A model generated the notes under the pieces. It ran no database searches, had not been told where the DNA came from, and saw nothing but the letters and a program-made list of their open reading frames with translations. The position numbers and the translations under genes were made by a program. Positions 6,678 to 29,822 of a DNA stretch of 35,521 bases are shown here, one piece after another. This DNA is from an uncultured Oscillospiraceae bacterium. Lineage in GTDB: Bacteria > Bacillota > Clostridia > Oscillospirales > Oscillospiraceae. The stretch's first letter is position 1. Every line of letters starts with the position of its first letter. The stretch lies in NCBI GenBank assembly GCA_944385435.1, contig CALWXG010000024.1, positions 1 to 35,521 of the forward strand, written 5' to 3'.

Positions 6678-6692
6678 CAGCTTACAACCAGA

Positions 6693-6785
6693 TACAGGGG
6701 AGCTCGTGCGTGCGGGCTGAGAGGAAGTCATCAACTTCGACCCTTACACCTGATGCGGATAATGCCGCCGTAGGAAGTCATCCAG
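6693..6785 (+). promoter_or_regulatory. TPP riboswitch (THI box)
   Basis: The conserved thiamine-pyrophosphate aptamer elements appear in order: CAGGGGAGCTC, GGGCTGAGAGG (6714-6724), GACCCTTACACCTGATG, GGATAATGCCGCCGTAGGAAG. These form the P1-P2-P4 junctions that bind the pyrimidine and pyrophosphate ends of TPP. A terminator follows 14 nt later, so TPP is expected to switch off transcription of thiW-thiM-thiE-thiD-thiC. Confidence 0.95.
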
Positions 6786-6798
6786 ATCGGATTTTTTT

Positions 6799-11516: not shown

Positions 11517-13931
11517 TCAGAGCAGGTTCAGAATGGTGAGCAGCCGGCGGGCCAGCCGGATCTGGTAGTTGGCGCAGCCGTAGACACCCCGGCCCCCACG
11601 GTCCAGAATCAGGACCAGAGGCAGACGGCTGTCCCCCAGGCCCATGGCGCGCTGCAGGGCGAGCCGGTCCGCCCGGGGGCAGAGCAGGCAGGTGCCGGCG
11701 GGAATGGCCTGAAGCACCTGCTGCAGGGTGCGGTTTTTCCGCTGGTCCGGGTCGGCGAGGACCATCCGGATGGGCCAGCCGCCCTGGCGGAAGGCGCCGC
11801 TCAGCTCCAGCAGTTCCCGGAGCAGATGCTCTGTGGGTTCCCTGCCGGGCTGAAGGAACAGCAGCACGCCGCCCCGGTGGGACGGAAGGCACAGGGGAGA
11901 GGGTGCCCCGCCTGACAGGGGAATGCCCTTGACGCCGGGGAGGGTGACGCACCGGAGCAGCCGGCCGGTCCGGTCCGGTTCCAGCTCCAGGGGTATGGTC
12001 CGGTCCGTGTGGAGGAGAAACTGGATGGCCCTGGCGCTGACGGTGCCGTCGATCTGCCTGCGGGCGGTGATCAGGCGGTAGGCGCCGGGGGGCAGGGAGA
12101 GCCGGGTTTCGGGGGAGAGGGCCAGGGAGCCGAACTCCAGGACCCGGTAGTCCGTGCCGTCCCACCGGGCCAGGGTGGCGTGCTCCCCATACCGGAGCTC
12201 CGGCTCCGCTGCGGCCAGGGTGAGGGTGACGGGCGAATACGAAGGGGAATCTCCGGCCGCGGAAAAACGATGGGTAATCGTATCCAGCCGGGCGGGGATG
12301 CCCAGGGCCCGGCAGATCTCCACGGCGGTCAGCTCCCGCTCCGAGGGAGGACAGGCCCTGTGCCGCATATACCCGGCGGCGCTGCCCCGGCGGTCCGTGC
12401 GGCCGTACTCCTCCAGGGGGTGCAGGTGGGTGTCCATCCAGTCCAGCACGTCCCGGGCGGTGTGCAGGGGTTCCCCTGCCAGCAGACGGCGCAGGGCAGC
12501 CCGGACGGGGAGCAGGGGCTCCCACTCCACCCGGGGGGCCAGGATCTGATCCCGCCACACCGGGAGGGGGAACCGGCCCTTCCAGGGCAGAGCCGCGGCC
12601 AGGGCATCGGACAGGACGGCGCAGGTGACGTCGCTGAGGTCCTTTTCCGTGAGGGTGGACAGGAGCAGATCCTTGTCCTCCGTGGAGAAACAGGTCAGCC
12701 GGCAGAAGCGGGCGATCTCACCGCCGTTTTTTCCGGCGAGCTCCACCCACCTGGCGCAGGCCGGGGGAAGGCCGGAAGGGGGCTGGGGCACGCCGGCTTC
12801 ACAGGGCTGCTCCGGAAGGTGGGTCTCGTCCCACAGGGCGGGGCGCTCCGGCAGCCGCTCGGCCGGCGGGGTCAGCTCCCAGCGGACGCGGCCCTCCCGG
12901 GTGAGGGGGTCGAAGCCGTCTTCCCACCGCAGGGTGACGGCCCGGGTTTCACGCACGTCCGCCCGCTGTTCCAGCAGACGGCCGCCCACACAGGCGGAGA
13001 GCACCAGGCAGCCCAGCCCCACCTCCAGGGAGACGCAGCCCGCCCCGTCGGTGTGTCCCTCCCACAGGGACTTCAGCTGGGCGTAGTTTACCAGCTGGAA
13101 CCGCACCGGGACGCCGGGACAGGGGCGGCTGTCCCGTTCCACCCGCACCGTGAGCCGGGCGGTGTCCCCGTACCGGCCGGTGGTGTTGATCAGTTCCCAG
13201 CCGCCCTGCACCGGATCGGGGGCGAAGCTGCGCACCAGCATGGCCCGGGAGGCGGCGGAGGTGAACCAGCCGGTATCGGGCTGGGGCTCTGGTTCGCAGG
13301 CGCCGGTATAGTGCCAGCTGCCGTCCGCCCAGAACTCCACCCAGGCGTGGTTGTCGTCGCAGTGGGCCCACCAGGGGGCATAGCACTGCCGGGCGGGGAT
13401 GCACACGGCTCGCAGGGCGCTGACCAGCAGGGTGGACTCCTCCCCGCACCGGCCCTTGCCCCGGCGGAGCACAGCCAGGGGGGCGAGGGTGCGGTCATCG
13501 GTGGGGGCGTAGGACACCCGCGACCCGCACCAGCGGTTGACGGCCAGGGCGGCGCTGAGCATGTTTTGACCGGACGGCTGCGCTTCCAGCCATCGGAGGA
13601 GCTCCGGGCCGAACTGCTGCCGGAAGCGGTCGGGGTATTCGTTGTTGACCCGGGGCGGCAGCACATAGCGGAGAAACAGCTCCTCCGGGACGCGGCTGCC
13701 CCAGGGGACGGCCTGCCTGGCGGCCAGGGATGCCCCGGCGCAGTCTGCCAGCAGCTCCAGCGGGAGGGAGAGCTGGTCCCGGCCGTCCAGCAGTGCGTAC
13801 AGTGCCGGCAGGCACCGGCGCAGGTCCGGGTCGGGCAGGCGGGCGGTCAGTTCCTCCAGCTCAGCCCACCGGGCCGGGAACCGGGTCCGGGCGGCCTGCA
13901 GCCTGGCTTGCATCGGTGGGGAGAGTGTCAT
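11517..13931 (-). CDS. Large transglutaminase-like domain protein
   Basis: An 804-residue protein without signal peptide or membrane segment. Residues about 125-215 form a transglutaminase-like (papain-fold) core with the triad Cys162 in RRGKGRCGEES, His195 in DDNHAWVEF and Asp203 in WADGSWHY. A stretch at about 220-330 looks beta-rich (LTVRVERDSRPCPGVPVRF), like an Ig-like insertion. Around residues 460-560 a second, degenerate core seems present (SERELTAVEICRALGIPARL), and the C-terminal 150 residues (GGVLLFLQPGREPTEH) look like an alpha/beta domain. Such bacterial proteins may be proteases or amide-bond enzymes; the substrate is unknown. It is the last gene of the minus-strand operon and overlaps cutC by 4 nt. 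Confidence 0.75.
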   Translation of the reverse strand: MTLSPPMQARLQAARTRFPARWAELEELTARLPDPDLRRCLPALYALLDGRDQLSLPLELLADCAGASLAARQAVPWGSRVPEELFLRYVLPPRVNNEYPDRFRQQFGPELLRWLEAQPSGQNMLSAALAVNRWCGSRVSYAPTDDRTLAPLAVLRRGKGRCGEESTLLVSALRAVCIPARQCYAPWWAHCDDNHAWVEFWADGSWHYTGACEPEPQPDTGWFTSAASRAMLVRSFAPDPVQGGWELINTTGRYGDTARLTVRVERDSRPCPGVPVRFQLVNYAQLKSLWEGHTDGAGCVSLEVGLGCLVLSACVGGRLLEQRADVRETRAVTLRWEDGFDPLTREGRVRWELTPPAERLPERPALWDETHLPEQPCEAGVPQPPSGLPPACARWVELAGKNGGEIARFCRLTCFSTEDKDLLLSTLTEKDLSDVTCAVLSDALAAALPWKGRFPLPVWRDQILAPRVEWEPLLPVRAALRRLLAGEPLHTARDVLDWMDTHLHPLEEYGRTDRRGSAAGYMRHRACPPSERELTAVEICRALGIPARLDTITHRFSAAGDSPSYSPVTLTLAAAEPELRYGEHATLARWDGTDYRVLEFGSLALSPETRLSLPPGAYRLITARRQIDGTVSARAIQFLLHTDRTIPLELEPDRTGRLLRCVTLPGVKGIPLSGGAPSPLCLPSHRGGVLLFLQPGREPTEHLLRELLELSGAFRQGGWPIRMVLADPDQRKNRTLQQVLQAIPAGTCLLCPRADRLALQRAMGLGDSRLPLVLILDRGGRGVYGCANYQIRLARRLLTILNLL

Positions 13932-24083: not shown

Positions 24084-24159
24084 GCGCAAAAGCCGGTCCG
24101 GCCACAGACCGGATCGGGAGCATTGTGTCGGCAATCTCTGTCTCCTTTTCAGAAAAGGA

Positions 24160-24262
24160 AGGCCAGGACATTTCTGTCGCTGACCCCGTGGGGCGGCGGG
24201 AACAGCTGCCCCAGGCCGTCCGGCCATGGGCGTGCGCCTTTAGGCCGGAGGGCTCGGAAACG
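24160..24262 (-). promoter_or_regulatory. Molybdenum cofactor (Moco) riboswitch
   Basis: Minus-strand RNA with the conserved Moco-RNA elements in order: CGAGCCCTCCGGCC, TAAAGGCGCACGCC, TGGCCGGACGGCC, and the 3' element ACAGAAATGTCCTGG. A GGGGC/GCCCC hairpin is present between the last two; this is the P3-type stem that is missing in the variant thought to sense tungsten cofactor, so molybdenum cofactor is the likelier ligand. Downstream genes are modA, modB and modC, a classic target. Confidence 0.88.
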
Positions 24263-24274
24263 AGTGGTATAACC

Positions 24275-24307: not shown

Positions 24308-26458
24308 TCAGTATTGGTTCACCCAATTGGCCAGCAGCAGCTCAGGCACCAGCCAGGCCAGCATGAACACCAGGAAGCTGACCGGGGTGAGGGAGTCCCA
24401 GGCGCCCACATAGGTGAGGTAAAAGGTGAGGCAGACGCCCAGAACGGCGCCCAGCAGGGTGAAGACCAGGCTGCGGCGGAGGGTGGAGCGCAGACGGCGG
24501 CCGCCCACCACGGCCTCGGAGTAGGCGTTGAGCCCCTCCCGGCCCAGCAGGGCCACCGGGATGTCGCTGTGCTCCTGGTCCGGCTGGGACAGCTCCAGCC
24601 GCCGCTCCACCGGTGGAAACTCCATCTTGTCCACGGGGAGCTTGAACTTCTGCTCCAGCAGGGCGGGGATGAGATTGAAGTCCCGGGTGGCCAGGATGGG
24701 GGACACGTCGGCGTGCATCAGGGCGGACAGGGCGGGGTTGACGGCGGAGCTCATGGCGTAGTTCAGGGGGAACATGCCGGCCAGCTGGCCGTCGATGGCG
24801 CAGAATACCCCGTGCTTGATGTTCAGGCCCTGGGGCAGGGTCACGTCCATCAGGTGCATGAAGGCGGCGGTGCCCACCAGCACCTCCTGGTTGCGGATGA
24901 TGCCGGACAGGCCGCCCTCGTGGGGGCGCACACCGGACACCTCCCGGTAGATGGCGCCCTGGGCGCGGAGCAGATCGTGGAAGGGGCGGGTGAGGCCGCA
25001 CTGGAAGACCCGCAGCAGGGTGGCGGTGTAGGCCACCACCTTCTCCGTGGACACGCCGCCGAAGACCCGAACCTGGGCCACCTGTACACTGCCGGGGGGG
25101 AAGAGGTCCAGATCGGTCATGAGGATGCCGGCGCTCCGGCAGCGGGAGACGCCCGGCCAGCCGGCCAGAGCGGCGCCGATCTTGTGCAGACGCTGGGCCA
25201 GCTTCTGGTAGGGCAGGGCGTAGGCCAGCAGAGCGGACCAGGGGCAGGCGGCGGTGAAGCAGGCGGAGGCGGACCAGAGAAACCGGGCCGGGTCGCCGCA
25301 GTTCACCGCGGCCATCAGGGAACACAGAAGGCAGGCCAGCATCAGAAGGGGCGCGGCAATGCGCCAGGCCAGCTGGGCGCCGTCCTCGCTCTGAAGCTGG
25401 CTGCCGAAGCCCACCGTGGAGCCGGACCATTTGGCGTAGGCCGGCCGGCCGCTCCATTTGCTGTCATCCAGGGTTACCACATAGGGGGTGCGGGTGAGGG
25501 CGGCGGTCTTGGCGCTCAGCCGGTCGCCCCGTCGGTGCAGGGTGTCGCCCCAGAAGGCGAAGGCGAGGCACAGGGCGGTGACTGTGCAGCAGGGCAGACC
25601 CTGCCGGTACTGGGTTGCCAGAAGCAGCAGGGTGTCCGCCAGAGTGAACAGCCAGGCCAGGGCCAGCAGGGTCTCCGCGCCGGGGCGCAGGGAGACCAGC
25701 TGGGACAGGCCCCGGACAGGCAGCTCCCAGCACAGCAGGCCTGTGAGCAGCAGCAGTCCGGCCAGGGCGGCCAGGCGGACGGTGGGCATGGGGGCGGCGC
25801 TCCAGTCCAGGAAGGGGACGTCCAGGGAGAGAAACGCCGCGGCCAGGCCGGCGAGAAAGCCCAGGCCGGTGCGGATCCTGCGCCCCTTCAGACCCCGCTG
25901 CCAGCGCTCGGCCAGATCCGCCGGGGCGGTGTCCGGGAAGAGCCGGGCGGGCCGGCGGTTTGCAGCGCGGGGTTTGGGAGGTGCCGGGGCCGGCTGTTCC
26001 TCCCGGTCCACGCCGGGGATGTAGCGCTCGGCCTTCACCGTCTCCTCGTCGGGCTCGGCCTGGTCGTACATGTGGTCTGCGTAGTGGTCCGCCCGGCGCA
26101 TCAGGGTGGACAGACGGGCTGCCAGGTGCCGGCCGATGCCGTCCGGGACGATTTCCGCCACGGGGGCGGGGGCTTTTTCCCCTTCCGGGGCGGGTGCCGG
26201 GCCGCGCCTGTCCCGGCTGCGGGTCACCGGGAAGGGGTCCGGGCCGGGTTCCGGCGTGGTGGGGGAGACAGACTCCGCCCGCTCCTCCGGCAGAAGGGGA
26301 ACGGTGTCCTGCCGGGCGGCGGACGGCTGCCGCTCCGGGAAGGGCACCACCTTCTGGGAGGGCTTTGGATATTTTCCGGTGCCGTATTCGGCCAGAATTT
26401 CATCCACCGAATACTGCTTCTGGTTCTCTCTCTCCTGATCCTTGCGGTCTGATGACAT
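24308..26458 (-). CDS. Membrane protein resembling a catalytically dead P-type ATPase
   Basis: A 716-residue protein. Residues 1-190 are polar, Pro/Glu-rich and probably disordered (YSVDEILAEYGTGKY near the start). Hydrophobic segments at about 198-216, 226-246, 263-283, 289-305, 366-386, 390-412, 662-685 and 691-712 give the 4+2+2 layout of P1B-type metal ATPases. Between the last two pairs lies a domain matching their P and N domains: ACPWSALLAYALP where CPC is expected, ILMTDLDLFPPG where DKTGTLT is expected, GGLSGIIRNQEVLVGTAAFM (N-domain), and ILATRDFN in place of MLTGDN. VALLGREGLNAYSEAV stands where MVGDGINDAPAL is expected. The actuator TGE motif is not visible. Phosphorylation and Mg-binding residues are thus lost, suggesting a pseudoenzyme. 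It starts 46 nt after rlmB with AAAAGGAG. Confidence 0.6.
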   Translation of the reverse strand: MSSDRKDQERENQKQYSVDEILAEYGTGKYPKPSQKVVPFPERQPSAARQDTVPLLPEERAESVSPTTPEPGPDPFPVTRSRDRRGPAPAPEGEKAPAPVAEIVPDGIGRHLAARLSTLMRRADHYADHMYDQAEPDEETVKAERYIPGVDREEQPAPAPPKPRAANRRPARLFPDTAPADLAERWQRGLKGRRIRTGLGFLAGLAAAFLSLDVPFLDWSAAPMPTVRLAALAGLLLLTGLLCWELPVRGLSQLVSLRPGAETLLALAWLFTLADTLLLLATQYRQGLPCCTVTALCLAFAFWGDTLHRRGDRLSAKTAALTRTPYVVTLDDSKWSGRPAYAKWSGSTVGFGSQLQSEDGAQLAWRIAAPLLMLACLLCSLMAAVNCGDPARFLWSASACFTAACPWSALLAYALPYQKLAQRLHKIGAALAGWPGVSRCRSAGILMTDLDLFPPGSVQVAQVRVFGGVSTEKVVAYTATLLRVFQCGLTRPFHDLLRAQGAIYREVSGVRPHEGGLSGIIRNQEVLVGTAAFMHLMDVTLPQGLNIKHGVFCAIDGQLAGMFPLNYAMSSAVNPALSALMHADVSPILATRDFNLIPALLEQKFKLPVDKMEFPPVERRLELSQPDQEHSDIPVALLGREGLNAYSEAVVGGRRLRSTLRRSLVFTLLGAVLGVCLTFYLTYVGAWDSLTPVSFLVFMLAWLVPELLLANWVNQY

Positions 26459-26504: not shown

Positions 26505-27284
26505 TCAGCCGCGCTGCCGCACCGCCTCATACAGGACAATGGCGGCGGCGGCGGAGGCGTTCAGGGAGTTGAGCTGCCCCCGCATGGGGATGGACACCAG
26601 GAAGTCGCACTGCTCCCGCACCAGGCGGCTCATGCCGTCCCCCTCGCTGCCGATGACGATGGCGGCTGGGCCCTTCAGGTCGGCCCGGTAGAGGGGGGTG
26701 GAGCCGTCGGCGGCGGTGCCGTAGACCCAGATGCCCTCCTCTTTCAGCTGCTTGAGCAGGGCGGTGAGGTTGGGGACCCGGGCCACGGGCAGGTAGCTCA
26801 CGGCGCCGGCGCTGGTCTTGGCCACCACGGCGGTGAGGCCGGCGGAGCGGCGCTTGGGGATGACCACCCCGTGGGCTCCGGCGCACTCCGCGGTGCGGAT
26901 GACGGCGCCCAGATTGTGGGGGTCGCTGAGCTCATCGCACACCACAATGAGAGGGGCTTCCCCCTTTTCCCGGGCGGCGGCCAGGATGTCCTCCACGCTG
27001 GCGTAGGCGCGCACGGCGGCCACGGCGATGACGCCCTGGTGGCTGTGGGTGCGGCTCATGGCGTCCAGCTTGCGCCGGTCGCACTCCACCACCACCACGC
27101 CCCGGTCCCGGGCCGCGGCGGCGATGTAGCCCAGGGTATTGTCCGTATCCCCTTTGGCGATGTAGACCTTATCGATGGCCGTGCCGGAGCGCAGGGCCTC
27201 CGTGACTGCGTTGCGGCCCTCGATCAGGCCGTCCGCGCCGTCCTCCTCCTGCCTGGCCGGCCGGCGGCGTTTGTTCTCTTCCAT
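26505..27284 (-). CDS. rlmB: 23S rRNA (guanosine-2'-O-)-methyltransferase RlmB (TrmH family)
   Basis: A 259-residue SPOUT methyltransferase. After a charged N-terminus (MEENKRRRPARQEED), a substrate-binding domain begins with LIEGRNAVTEALRSG. Three SPOUT motifs follow: DELSDPHNLGAVIRTAEC, IVIGSEGDGMSRLV and SIPMRGQLNSLNASAAAAI, forming the trefoil knot that binds S-adenosylmethionine. The expected product is Gm2251 in 23S rRNA; a related TrmH-group 2'-O-methylase with another target is possible. The ATG at 27282-27284 has AAGGAG 9 nt upstream. Reading frame continues antisense across ftsH but that part is not coding. It is first gene of a pair with the P-type-ATPase-like gene. Confidence 0.92.
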   Translation of the reverse strand: MEENKRRRPARQEEDGADGLIEGRNAVTEALRSGTAIDKVYIAKGDTDNTLGYIAAAARDRGVVVVECDRRKLDAMSRTHSHQGVIAVAAVRAYASVEDILAAAREKGEAPLIVVCDELSDPHNLGAVIRTAECAGAHGVVIPKRRSAGLTAVVAKTSAGAVSYLPVARVPNLTALLKQLKEEGIWVYGTAADGSTPLYRADLKGPAAIVIGSEGDGMSRLVREQCDFLVSIPMRGQLNSLNASAAAAIVLYEAVRQRG

Positions 27285-27468: not shown

Positions 27469-27497
27469 TTGTTTTTGGTTGTGAAATATGTTAGAAT
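27469..27497 (+). promoter_or_regulatory. Promoter of ftsH
   Basis: TTGTTT (27469-27474), 17-nt spacer, TAGAAT (27492-27497). Predicted start near 27504 leaves a 120-nt leader. Confidence 0.7.
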
Positions 27498-27505
27498 AAA
27501 GCTCA

Positions 27506-27606
27506 TCAAATCTGCGCCCCCGGAGGAAAAGGCGGATTTGAAGGTCGGGCACAGCCTGTCTGGAGCAGACAGAGGGCCGTGCCGGGGGAGGGAAAACGCC
27601 TCCCAT
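27506..27606 (+). other. Folded 5' leader of ftsH
   Basis: Three consecutive stems are visible: TCAAATC/GGATTTGA around a purine-rich loop (about 27506-27542), CTGTCTG-GAG-CAGACAG (27557-27573) enclosed by GGGCAC/GTGCC arms, and GGGAGG/GCCTCCC (about 27587-27605) just before the ribosome site. No known riboswitch class is recognised. Confidence 0.4.
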
Positions 27607-27626
27607 CTATGAAGGAGCGTGCGCCT

Positions 27627-29822
<2,196 letters not shown>

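What the first reader, a model, noticed from the sequence alone, without database searches (positions are those of the whole stretch)
24308..26458. P-type ATPase scaffold stripped of its catalytic residues, co-transcribed with rlmB
The 4+2+2 helix layout and the ordered landmarks of a P1B metal ATPase are all recognisable. Every catalytic motif, however, is altered: CPC became CPW, DKTGT became MTDLDLF, TGDN became ATRDFN, and GDGIND became GREGLN. The actuator TGE is absent and an approximately 190-residue disordered N-terminus has been added. This looks like a conserved pseudoenzyme, perhaps a sensor, scaffold or regulator, rather than a pump. A random dead gene would not keep a 716-codon open frame with a good ribosome site.
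Basis: partly seen in the sequence, partly recalled or inferred. Interest (0 to 1): 0.72.

Follow-up and report, generated by a model that had tools for sequence, protein, structure and literature searches.

The report
Dead copper-pump relative paired with rlmB
A membrane protein descended from copper pumps has lost the parts that make a pump work, yet nearly every sampled member of one bacterial order keeps it, almost always behind the same ribosome-modification gene, so it probably has a new, non-pumping job.

Summary
The gene is real: minus strand 24308-26458, 716 aa, 46 nt behind rlmB. It is homologous to CopA-type P1B ATPases over the whole transporter (hhalign 99.8%, E 1.1e-28), with 4+2+2 helices by hydropathy. 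It cannot run a P-type cycle. DKTGT is replaced by TDxDLFPPG; CPC and SEHP are gone. DKTGT and GDGxND occur in 0 of 161 aligned relatives, and both deletions are in all 161. It was found in 138 of 147 sampled genomes of the order; outside, only weak matches appear, eight inspected and all intact CopA. dN/dS is 0.09-0.47 in 135 pairs. rlmB lies upstream on the same strand in 155 of 156 loci with room, within 200 nt in all but a few. Best reading: a non-catalytic, membrane-anchored binding protein, possibly a partner of RlmB; the RlmB part is inference. No structure could be predicted.

The parts
24308..26458 (-). The gene: 716-aa pseudo-P1B ATPase (stop codon included)
26505..27284 (-). rlmB, 23S rRNA (guanosine(2251)-2'-O)-methyltransferase, upstream, 46-nt gap
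   Evidence: NCBIfam TIGR00186 248 bits, cut-off 160; coordinates
26384..26413 (-). N-terminal motif YSVDEILAEY (residues 16-25), the best conserved piece of the Pro/charge-rich N-terminus
   Evidence: no second copy found in the own genome by a 38-position profile
25547..25867 (-). Membrane helices 1-4 (residues about 198-304)
   Evidence: averaged hydropathy of 122 members; aligned to CopA M1-M4
25370..25510 (-). Remnant of the actuator domain (residues 317-363); about 63 CopA residues including TGES deleted
25223..25369 (-). Membrane helices 5-6 (residues 364-412), with CPW at 405-407 where CopA has CPC
   Evidence: CPW not conserved in the family
25091..25117 (-). TDLDLFPPG (residues 448-456) at the DKTGTLTxG position
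24704..25048 (-). N domain (residues 471-585), well conserved; the SEHP His and the Glu before it are lost
24674..24691 (-). ATRDFN (residues 590-595) at the TGDN position; Thr and Asp kept, Gly to Arg
24560..24574 (-). Site of the 32-residue deletion that removes GDGIND (near residues 629-633)
24332..24469 (-). Membrane helices 7-8 (residues about 664-709)

Best explanation
It is a CopA-type (P1B) ATPase converted, most simply once, early in this bacterial order, into a non-pumping membrane protein. Shown: homology over the whole transporter; loss of the actuator/TGES region and of the GDGIND stretch in every relative read; replacement of DKTGT; wide conservation in the order under purifying selection; near-fixed position behind rlmB. 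Inferred: without an actuator domain, Mg-binding loop or ATP-contact residues it cannot run the E1-E2 cycle, so the conserved P/N headpiece works by binding, with the former catalytic pocket (TDxDLFP, RDFN, R620) as a binding surface. The eight helices anchor the headpiece and the flexible N-terminus reaches out with a short, probably helical motif (SLEDILAEY) to a partner. The likeliest partner is RlmB or the maturing large ribosomal subunit, so the protein would tether or regulate rRNA modification at the membrane. My odds: not a pump 0.95; works by binding or scaffolding 0.65; functionally tied to RlmB 0.3.
For: Profile homology: hhalign 99.8%, E 1.1e-28 to CopA; HMMER profile to HMA4 2.7e-12 and LpCopA 7.2e-12. 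Deletions in all 161 relatives: M4-M5 segment 42-65 aa, TGD-to-M7 segment 59-68 aa. DKTGT in 0 and GDGxND in 0 of 161; the few TGDN, TGE[SP], SEHP and CP[CHS] strings found (1, 1, 1 and 2 of 161) lie away from the places of those motifs. dN/dS 0.089-0.473 in 135 pairs. The headpiece (1.95-2.09 bits) is more conserved than helices 1-6 (1.53-1.83), with helices 7-8 at 1.95 and the N-terminal motif at 2.66. Found in 138 of 147 genomes of the order (one of these, G225, as a weak contig-edge piece). rlmB upstream on the same strand in 155 of 156 loci with room, 150 of the 154 measured within 200 nt. Other neighbours are far less regular: an FtsH-like gene in 58 of 162 and an EF-G-like gene downstream in 54 of 162, though the loci fetched hold only about 1.5 kb of flank. 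Eight of 147 genomes show neither gene at the thresholds used. 16 pseudo-ATPases chosen for a tree form one clade, 100/100.
Against: No partner, localisation or phenotype is known. Gene order can reflect shared transcription only. The 'neither' genomes are soft evidence: adjacent genes can vanish together in an assembly gap; one search's profile missed three genomes that a wider profile recovered, and that wider profile was not run over the whole of the eight; five of the eight have rlmB-like matches below the cut-off. rlmB exists without this protein in the 57 genomes of the sample that lie outside the order. D449 and D451 are kept in most relatives, which would fit some remaining chemistry. 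In one genome (L136/G200) the gene lies away from rlmB. The N-terminal motif is weak outside the window's family (11 of 39). No structure could be predicted.
Confidence: 0.5

Rival explanations
1. Pseudo-pump whose job has nothing to do with RlmB; the two genes merely share a promoter, kept by regulatory convenience. The protein would be, for example, a membrane sensor or an assembly factor for other membrane proteins.
For: No direct link to RlmB beyond position. RlmB exists without it in the 57 sampled genomes outside the order. In one order outside (family code f40), rlmB is followed by copA in 5 of 11 genomes, three of them read in full and intact, so rlmB and P1B genes can sit together while the pump still works.
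Against: The adjacency holds in 155 of 156 loci while the other neighbours vary, and neither gene was detected in 8 of 147 genomes (see the limits given above).
Confidence: 0.4
2. A residual HAD-type enzyme: the P domain has returned to a DxD motif and acts as a phosphatase or phospho-acceptor rather than a pump.
For: D449 in 140 and D451 in 144 of 161, spaced as the nucleophile and acid/base of HAD phosphatases (recalled); T591 kept in 91 of 161.
Against: The loop bearing GDGIND, which carries Mg-binding acidic residues (recalled), is deleted in all 161; D449 is another residue in 21 of 161; T591 is V, I or A in 45 of 161; the motif register shifts in other families.
Confidence: 0.1
3. A passive metal or ion channel, or a membrane metal sensor, using the eight helices without ATP.
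For: All eight helices are kept; conserved helix-region residues P370, P416, G250, W702 and D275 (111 of 161).
Against: The CPx metal site is not conserved (P406 in 61, W407 in 17 of 161); helices 1-6 are less conserved than the headpiece.
Confidence: 0.1
4. A decaying pseudogene or a chance resemblance to P-type ATPases.
For: Catalytic motifs are missing; no Pfam or NCBIfam model reaches its cut-off in the members scanned.
Against: Purifying selection; found in 138 of 147 genomes, nearly always as an open frame; full-length profile match to CopA; eight intact CopA genes from outside the order score E 4e-41 to 4e-52 against the family profile.
Confidence: 0.01

Closest known systems
CopA / P1B-1 Cu+-transporting P-type ATPases (LpCopA 3rfu, HMA4)
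   Same: Sequence homology from M1 to M8, 4+2+2 helices, P and N domains in the same order.
   Different: No HMA domain found by Pfam in 11 members scanned; actuator/TGES region deleted; CPC, DKTGT, SEHP and GDGIND lost; long N-terminus with a SLEDILAEY-type motif.
Human TMEM94/ERMA (PMC12134183; passages read)
   Same: A P-type-ATPase-like membrane protein with A-, P- and N-like domains that lacks TGES and, in those authors' cryo-EM work, shows no nucleotide at the proposed site and no sign of a Post-Albers cycle.
   Different: Eukaryotic, ten helices, keeps an A-like domain, nearest in structure to SPCA; its status is disputed (a 2026 paper on ERMA as an ER Mg ATPase: listing and start of abstract only). 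Homology to the present family was not tested.
PcrP (PA2803) of Pseudomonas aeruginosa (search listing and start of abstract only)
   Same: A bacterial protein for which a non-catalytic function is reported; that it belongs to the HAD superfamily is recalled.
   Different: The text was not read; from what was seen it is not presented as a P-type ATPase descendant.

Membership tests
P1B-type ATPase | Sequence homology over the transporter | tested here: met
   hhalign E 1.1e-28, residues 184-714; HMMER profile 7.2e-12 to LpCopA
P1B-type ATPase | Eight membrane helices arranged 4+2+2 | tested here: met
   averaged hydropathy of 122 members; no dedicated topology program used
P1B-type ATPase | DKTGT phosphorylation motif | tested here: not met
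   0 of 161
P1B-type ATPase | GDGxND hinge/Mg motif | tested here: not met
   0 of 161; stretch deleted
P1B-type ATPase | Actuator domain with TGE | tested here: not met
   63-column deletion; 42-65 aa left in all 161; no PF00122 match in this gene; the only TGE[SP] string, in L081, lies in the N-terminus
P1B-type ATPase | CPx metal site in M6 | tested here: not met
   P406 in 61 of 161; CPW in the window protein; the two CP[CHS] strings (L112, L167) lie elsewhere
P1B-type ATPase | TGD motif | tested here: inconclusive
   T591 in 91, R592 (for Gly) in 125, D593 in 156 of 161
P1B-type ATPase | SEHP and Glu ATP contacts of the N domain | tested here: not met
   window residues opposite them are C487 and a Leu (read off); the only SEHP string, in L122, is at its N-terminal end
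P1B-type ATPase | Metal transport or ATPase activity | not testable with these tools
   needs purified protein
P-type ATPase fold | Three-dimensional fold | not tested
TMEM94 family | Homology to TMEM94 | not tested
   compared through passages of one paper only

The most novel reading that the evidence does not exclude
An entire bacterial order has turned a copper pump into a non-catalytic membrane partner of an rRNA methyltransferase. The protein would hold RlmB or maturing 50S particles at the membrane and so couple ribosome modification to membrane or metal state, a link that the paper searches made here did not turn up for any bacterium.
Probability: 0.22. Interest if true: 0.88.

Novelty: new variant of a known kind. 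Interest (0 to 1): 0.68.

Why it matters
Pseudoenzymes descended from P-type ATPases seem hardly known in bacteria: eight searches of the open-access library found no paper on one (most subscription journals are not held). This gene is spread through an order of common Clostridia, usually once per genome, and no Pfam or NCBIfam model reaches its cut-off in the members scanned. It offers a clean case of an ion pump that lost its motor by defined deletions yet was kept. Its near-fixed pairing with rlmB gives a testable idea about where and how 23S rRNA is modified. It also means that weak P-type-ATPase matches in these genomes should not be counted as metal pumps.

Tried and rejected
Sporulation protein: rejected. 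In the sample of 147 order genomes the family is present in 15 of 19 without SpoIVA and in 123 of 128 with it.

Shared docking motif with other proteins: the N-terminal motif profile found no second protein in the own genome. Among ORFs of at least 80 aa in the flanks of 167 loci, the only other match was in the second piece of a split family gene (L165).

Ancestral rlmB-copA pair: in one order outside (family code f40), rlmB is followed at -38 to +4 nt by copA in 5 of 11 genomes; the three read in full have all motifs intact, the other two are cut by the end of the locus. That looked like the ancestor, but the RlmB tree (84 rows; three of 29 outside rows dropped for length) puts f40 with other outside genomes, not beside the order, and the P-type tree cannot place the pseudo-clade among CopAs because of its long branch. 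In that RlmB tree the order itself needs two changes, since L144 falls among outside rows. None of 29 other outside loci has a P-type gene downstream of rlmB, though L223, L224 and L229 have shortened downstream room; L203 has one upstream. Left open.

Family outside the order: the 187 class genomes outside it give at best 6e-17 and the 197 other genomes of the phylum sample, at least four of them the same as in the class sample, at best 4e-17. Eight class matches were fetched, all intact CopA; the two phylum ones (G551, G683) and the remaining class ones were not inspected.

Rows dropped: of 127 loci, L005, L037, L039, L040 and L050 (a near-copy, a fragment, duplicates) were left out of the 122; L165 (split ORF) was left out of the 161. 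No two of the 161 are more than 98% identical, but they are related, so counts are not independent. Several begin at a stop-to-stop ORF or contig edge, so their N-termini are uncertain. The 135 dN/dS pairs are those of 72-98.5% identity; NG86 was used, which high GC can bias. That and the limits on the 'neither' genomes did not change my odds.

Full report
What is there. The finding is a 716-codon gene on the minus strand, 24308-26458, with ATG at 26458 behind AAAAGGAGCCTGAAC. 46 nt upstream on the same strand ends rlmB (26505-27284), which scores 248 bits against NCBIfam TIGR00186, cut-off 160. No terminator-like site on that strand lies between the two. Downstream, a promoter-like site at 24303-24275 and a molybdenum riboswitch at 24271-24126 begin the next unit, a ModA-like gene (named from its sequence, no search). 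So rlmB and this gene look like a two-gene unit; no transcript data were available. An open frame of 712 codons on the opposite strand (24314-26452) I take for a high-GC shadow.

What it descends from. One protein alone gives almost nothing: no Pfam family near its cut-off and NCBIfam CopA at E 0.041. A profile of 122 relatives (A1) matches copper ATPases of the PDB (HMA4 2.7e-12, LpCopA 7.2e-12). It aligns with P1B ATPases of the same genome at E 1.6e-15. A profile of 161 relatives aligns with six intact CopA proteins at probability 99.8%, E 1.1e-28, over residues 184-714, from the first to the last helix. Hydropathy averaged over 122 members gives 4+2+2 helices. The genome has seven ordinary P-type ATPases with intact DKTGT and GDGxND.

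What was lost. One search shows two large deletions. About 63 columns of the actuator domain, TGES included, are missing; 48 residues remain between M4 and M5. A 32-column stretch with GDGIND is missing from the P domain. Both deletions are found in all 161 sequences, 122 of the window's family and 39 of other families of the order (M4-M5 segment 42-65 aa, TGD-to-M7 segment 59-68 aa). DKTGT and GDGxND occur in 0 of 161. The few other motif strings (TGDN in L042, TGE[SP] in L081, SEHP in L122, CP[CHS] in L112 and L167) lie away from the motif places. At the DKTGT place stands TDxDLFPPG: D449 in 140, D451 in 144, F453 in 152, P454 in 149 of 161. At the TGDN place stands ATRDFN: T591 in 91, R592 in 125, D593 in 156, N595 in 132 of 161. 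The register of the first motif differs by one residue in some other families, where a D stands at 448 in 10 of 39, so which Asp matches the phosphorylated one is not certain. The His of SEHP and the Glu before it are C487 and a Leu in this protein (read off).

What was kept. The best conserved stretch is a short N-terminal motif, [FY]S[LV][DE]xILAE[FY], at 2.66 bits per column, then the P/N headpiece and helices 7-8 (about 1.95-2.09); helices 1-6 are at 1.53-1.83. The motif is mainly a feature of the window's family: a looser pattern matches 105 of 122 there and 11 of 39 in other families. It sits in a Pro-rich, charged region (16% Pro, 33% charged in residues 1-185), and a profile of it finds no second protein in the own genome. 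In 135 pairs of relatives NG86 dN/dS is 0.089 to 0.473. For the window gene against L002-L004, the core (171-716) gives dN 0.10-0.12 and dS 0.41-0.52.

Where it occurs. In the window's family 183 of 200 sampled genomes match, 127 of 129 high-quality ones. In the order, 135 of 147 match at E below 1e-15, the weakest best matches at 3e-25 to 5e-25; I read the sequences of a part of these, 40 from other families, and 39 of the 40 are in the alignment of 161. A wider profile recovers three more directly behind rlmB: G204 and G227 strongly, G225 only as a contig-edge piece at 6e-8. That makes 138 of 147. Most genomes have one match; four gave two, which look like pieces. In the class sample, the nine genomes of the order all have it (E below 1e-45) and the other 187 give at best 6e-17. 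Eight of those matches were fetched and all are intact CopA. In the phylum sample only the two genomes of the own genus have it, with two weak partial matches (4e-17) not inspected. A tree of 16 chosen pseudo-ATPases and 16 ordinary ones puts the 16 in one clade (100/100).

The rlmB link. Of 162 loci examined, rlmB lies upstream on the same strand in 154, within 200 nt in 150 of these; the others are at 342, 469, 828 and 1094 nt, the last because that gene is split. Of the eight without, six end at a contig edge and one (L141) proved adjacent on inspection, leaving L136 as the only exception: 155 of 156. The median gap is about 25 nt by the starts chosen. The next commonest neighbours are an FtsH-like gene in 58 of 162, none of them in other families, and an EF-G-like gene downstream in 54 of 162; the loci fetched hold only about 1.5 kb of flank, which lowers those two counts. 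In the order sample rlmB exceeds its cut-off in 137 of 147 genomes. The pair is detected together in 136, plus G287 whose rlmB is cut by the contig edge. rlmB alone appears in G203 and the pseudo-ATPase alone in G306, both at contig edges. Eight genomes show neither (G223, G231, G259, G264, G284, G297, G319, G324); five of them have rlmB-like matches below the cut-off, G259, G297 and G324 none at 1e-30. This is soft: adjacent genes can be lost in one assembly gap, and the wider profile was run on only three fetched stretches of these genomes. G259 and G324 are of one genus, 97 and 95% complete, in a family whose other sampled members match at 1e-146 or better, so there real co-loss is likely.

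How it most likely works. A P-type cycle needs an actuator TGE, the phosphorylated Asp with its Lys-Thr-Gly-Thr, and the Mg-binding GDGxND loop (recalled); the first and last are deleted and the middle one is changed throughout. So I hold ATP-driven pumping to be excluded. The conservation pattern (headpiece and, in the window's family, a docking-like motif, over helices 1-6) points to a membrane-anchored binding protein. The best-supported candidate partner is RlmB, on position and co-occurrence only; I put that at about 0.3. Rivals are a pseudo-pump with an unrelated job, a residual HAD enzyme, and a passive channel or metal sensor.

Origin. In a different order of the class (family code f40) rlmB is followed directly by copA in 5 of 11 genomes; the three read in full are intact. 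This could be a relic of an ancestral rlmB-copA pair or an independent event. The RlmB tree places f40 among the outside genomes rather than beside the order, so I do not claim it as the ancestor.

Compared with what is known. It looks like a pseudoenzyme on a P1B scaffold; it is not filed as a P1B ATPase, since defining motifs were tested and not met. The nearest described case is human TMEM94, for which PMC12134183 (passages read) reports A-, P- and N-like domains, no TGES and no sign of a Post-Albers cycle, though a 2026 paper seen in the listing and start of abstract calls it an ER Mg ATPase. Searches of the paper library for inactive or pseudo P-type ATPases, and for RlmB with P-type ATPase, found nothing on this family; that library lacks most subscription journals.

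Noticed in passing
window 24126-24271 (-): A molybdenum/tungsten (Moco) riboswitch, 82 bits, directly before a ModA-like molybdate-binding lipoprotein gene (named from its sequence only).
   Followed up: partly
window 6686-6793 (+): A TPP riboswitch aptamer, 63 bits.
   Followed up: no
window 24314-26452 (+): A full-length 712-codon open frame antisense to the gene; probably a high-GC shadow frame.
   Followed up: no
L232 3583-6570, L233 3164-6176, L234 3284-6266; also L235, L241: In another order of the class, copA overlaps or abuts the end of rlmB (-38 to +4 nt) in 5 of 11 genomes, an independent or ancestral rlmB-copA pairing.
   Followed up: partly
54 loci, e.g. L094 7367-9442, L149 7161-9252: An EF-G-like gene (one member scanned: NCBIfam PRK12740.1-5) lies downstream of the pseudo-ATPase, making an rlmB, pseudo-ATPase, EF-G-like run of genes.
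   Followed up: partly
58 loci of the window's family; also window 27495-29822 (+): An FtsH-like gene (named from its sequence, no family search) is found in these loci, on the strand opposite to the pseudo-ATPase in 54 of the 58.
   Followed up: no
L144 (553 aa) and the other ORFs of 541-564 aa of family code f10: The nine sampled genomes of this family have short members that seem to lack the N-terminal extension; four of the nine also lack SpoIVA. Only L144 was read.
   Followed up: no
L184 (G204) and L185 (G227), family code f6: RlmB here has a long basic, disordered-looking N-terminal extension (open frames of 408 and 450 aa); G245 of the same family has a 515-aa frame (not read).
   Followed up: no
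window 12113-12201 (-): ARAGORN calls a tRNA-Ala(GGC) of 89 nt inside long open frames; probably a false call.
   Followed up: no
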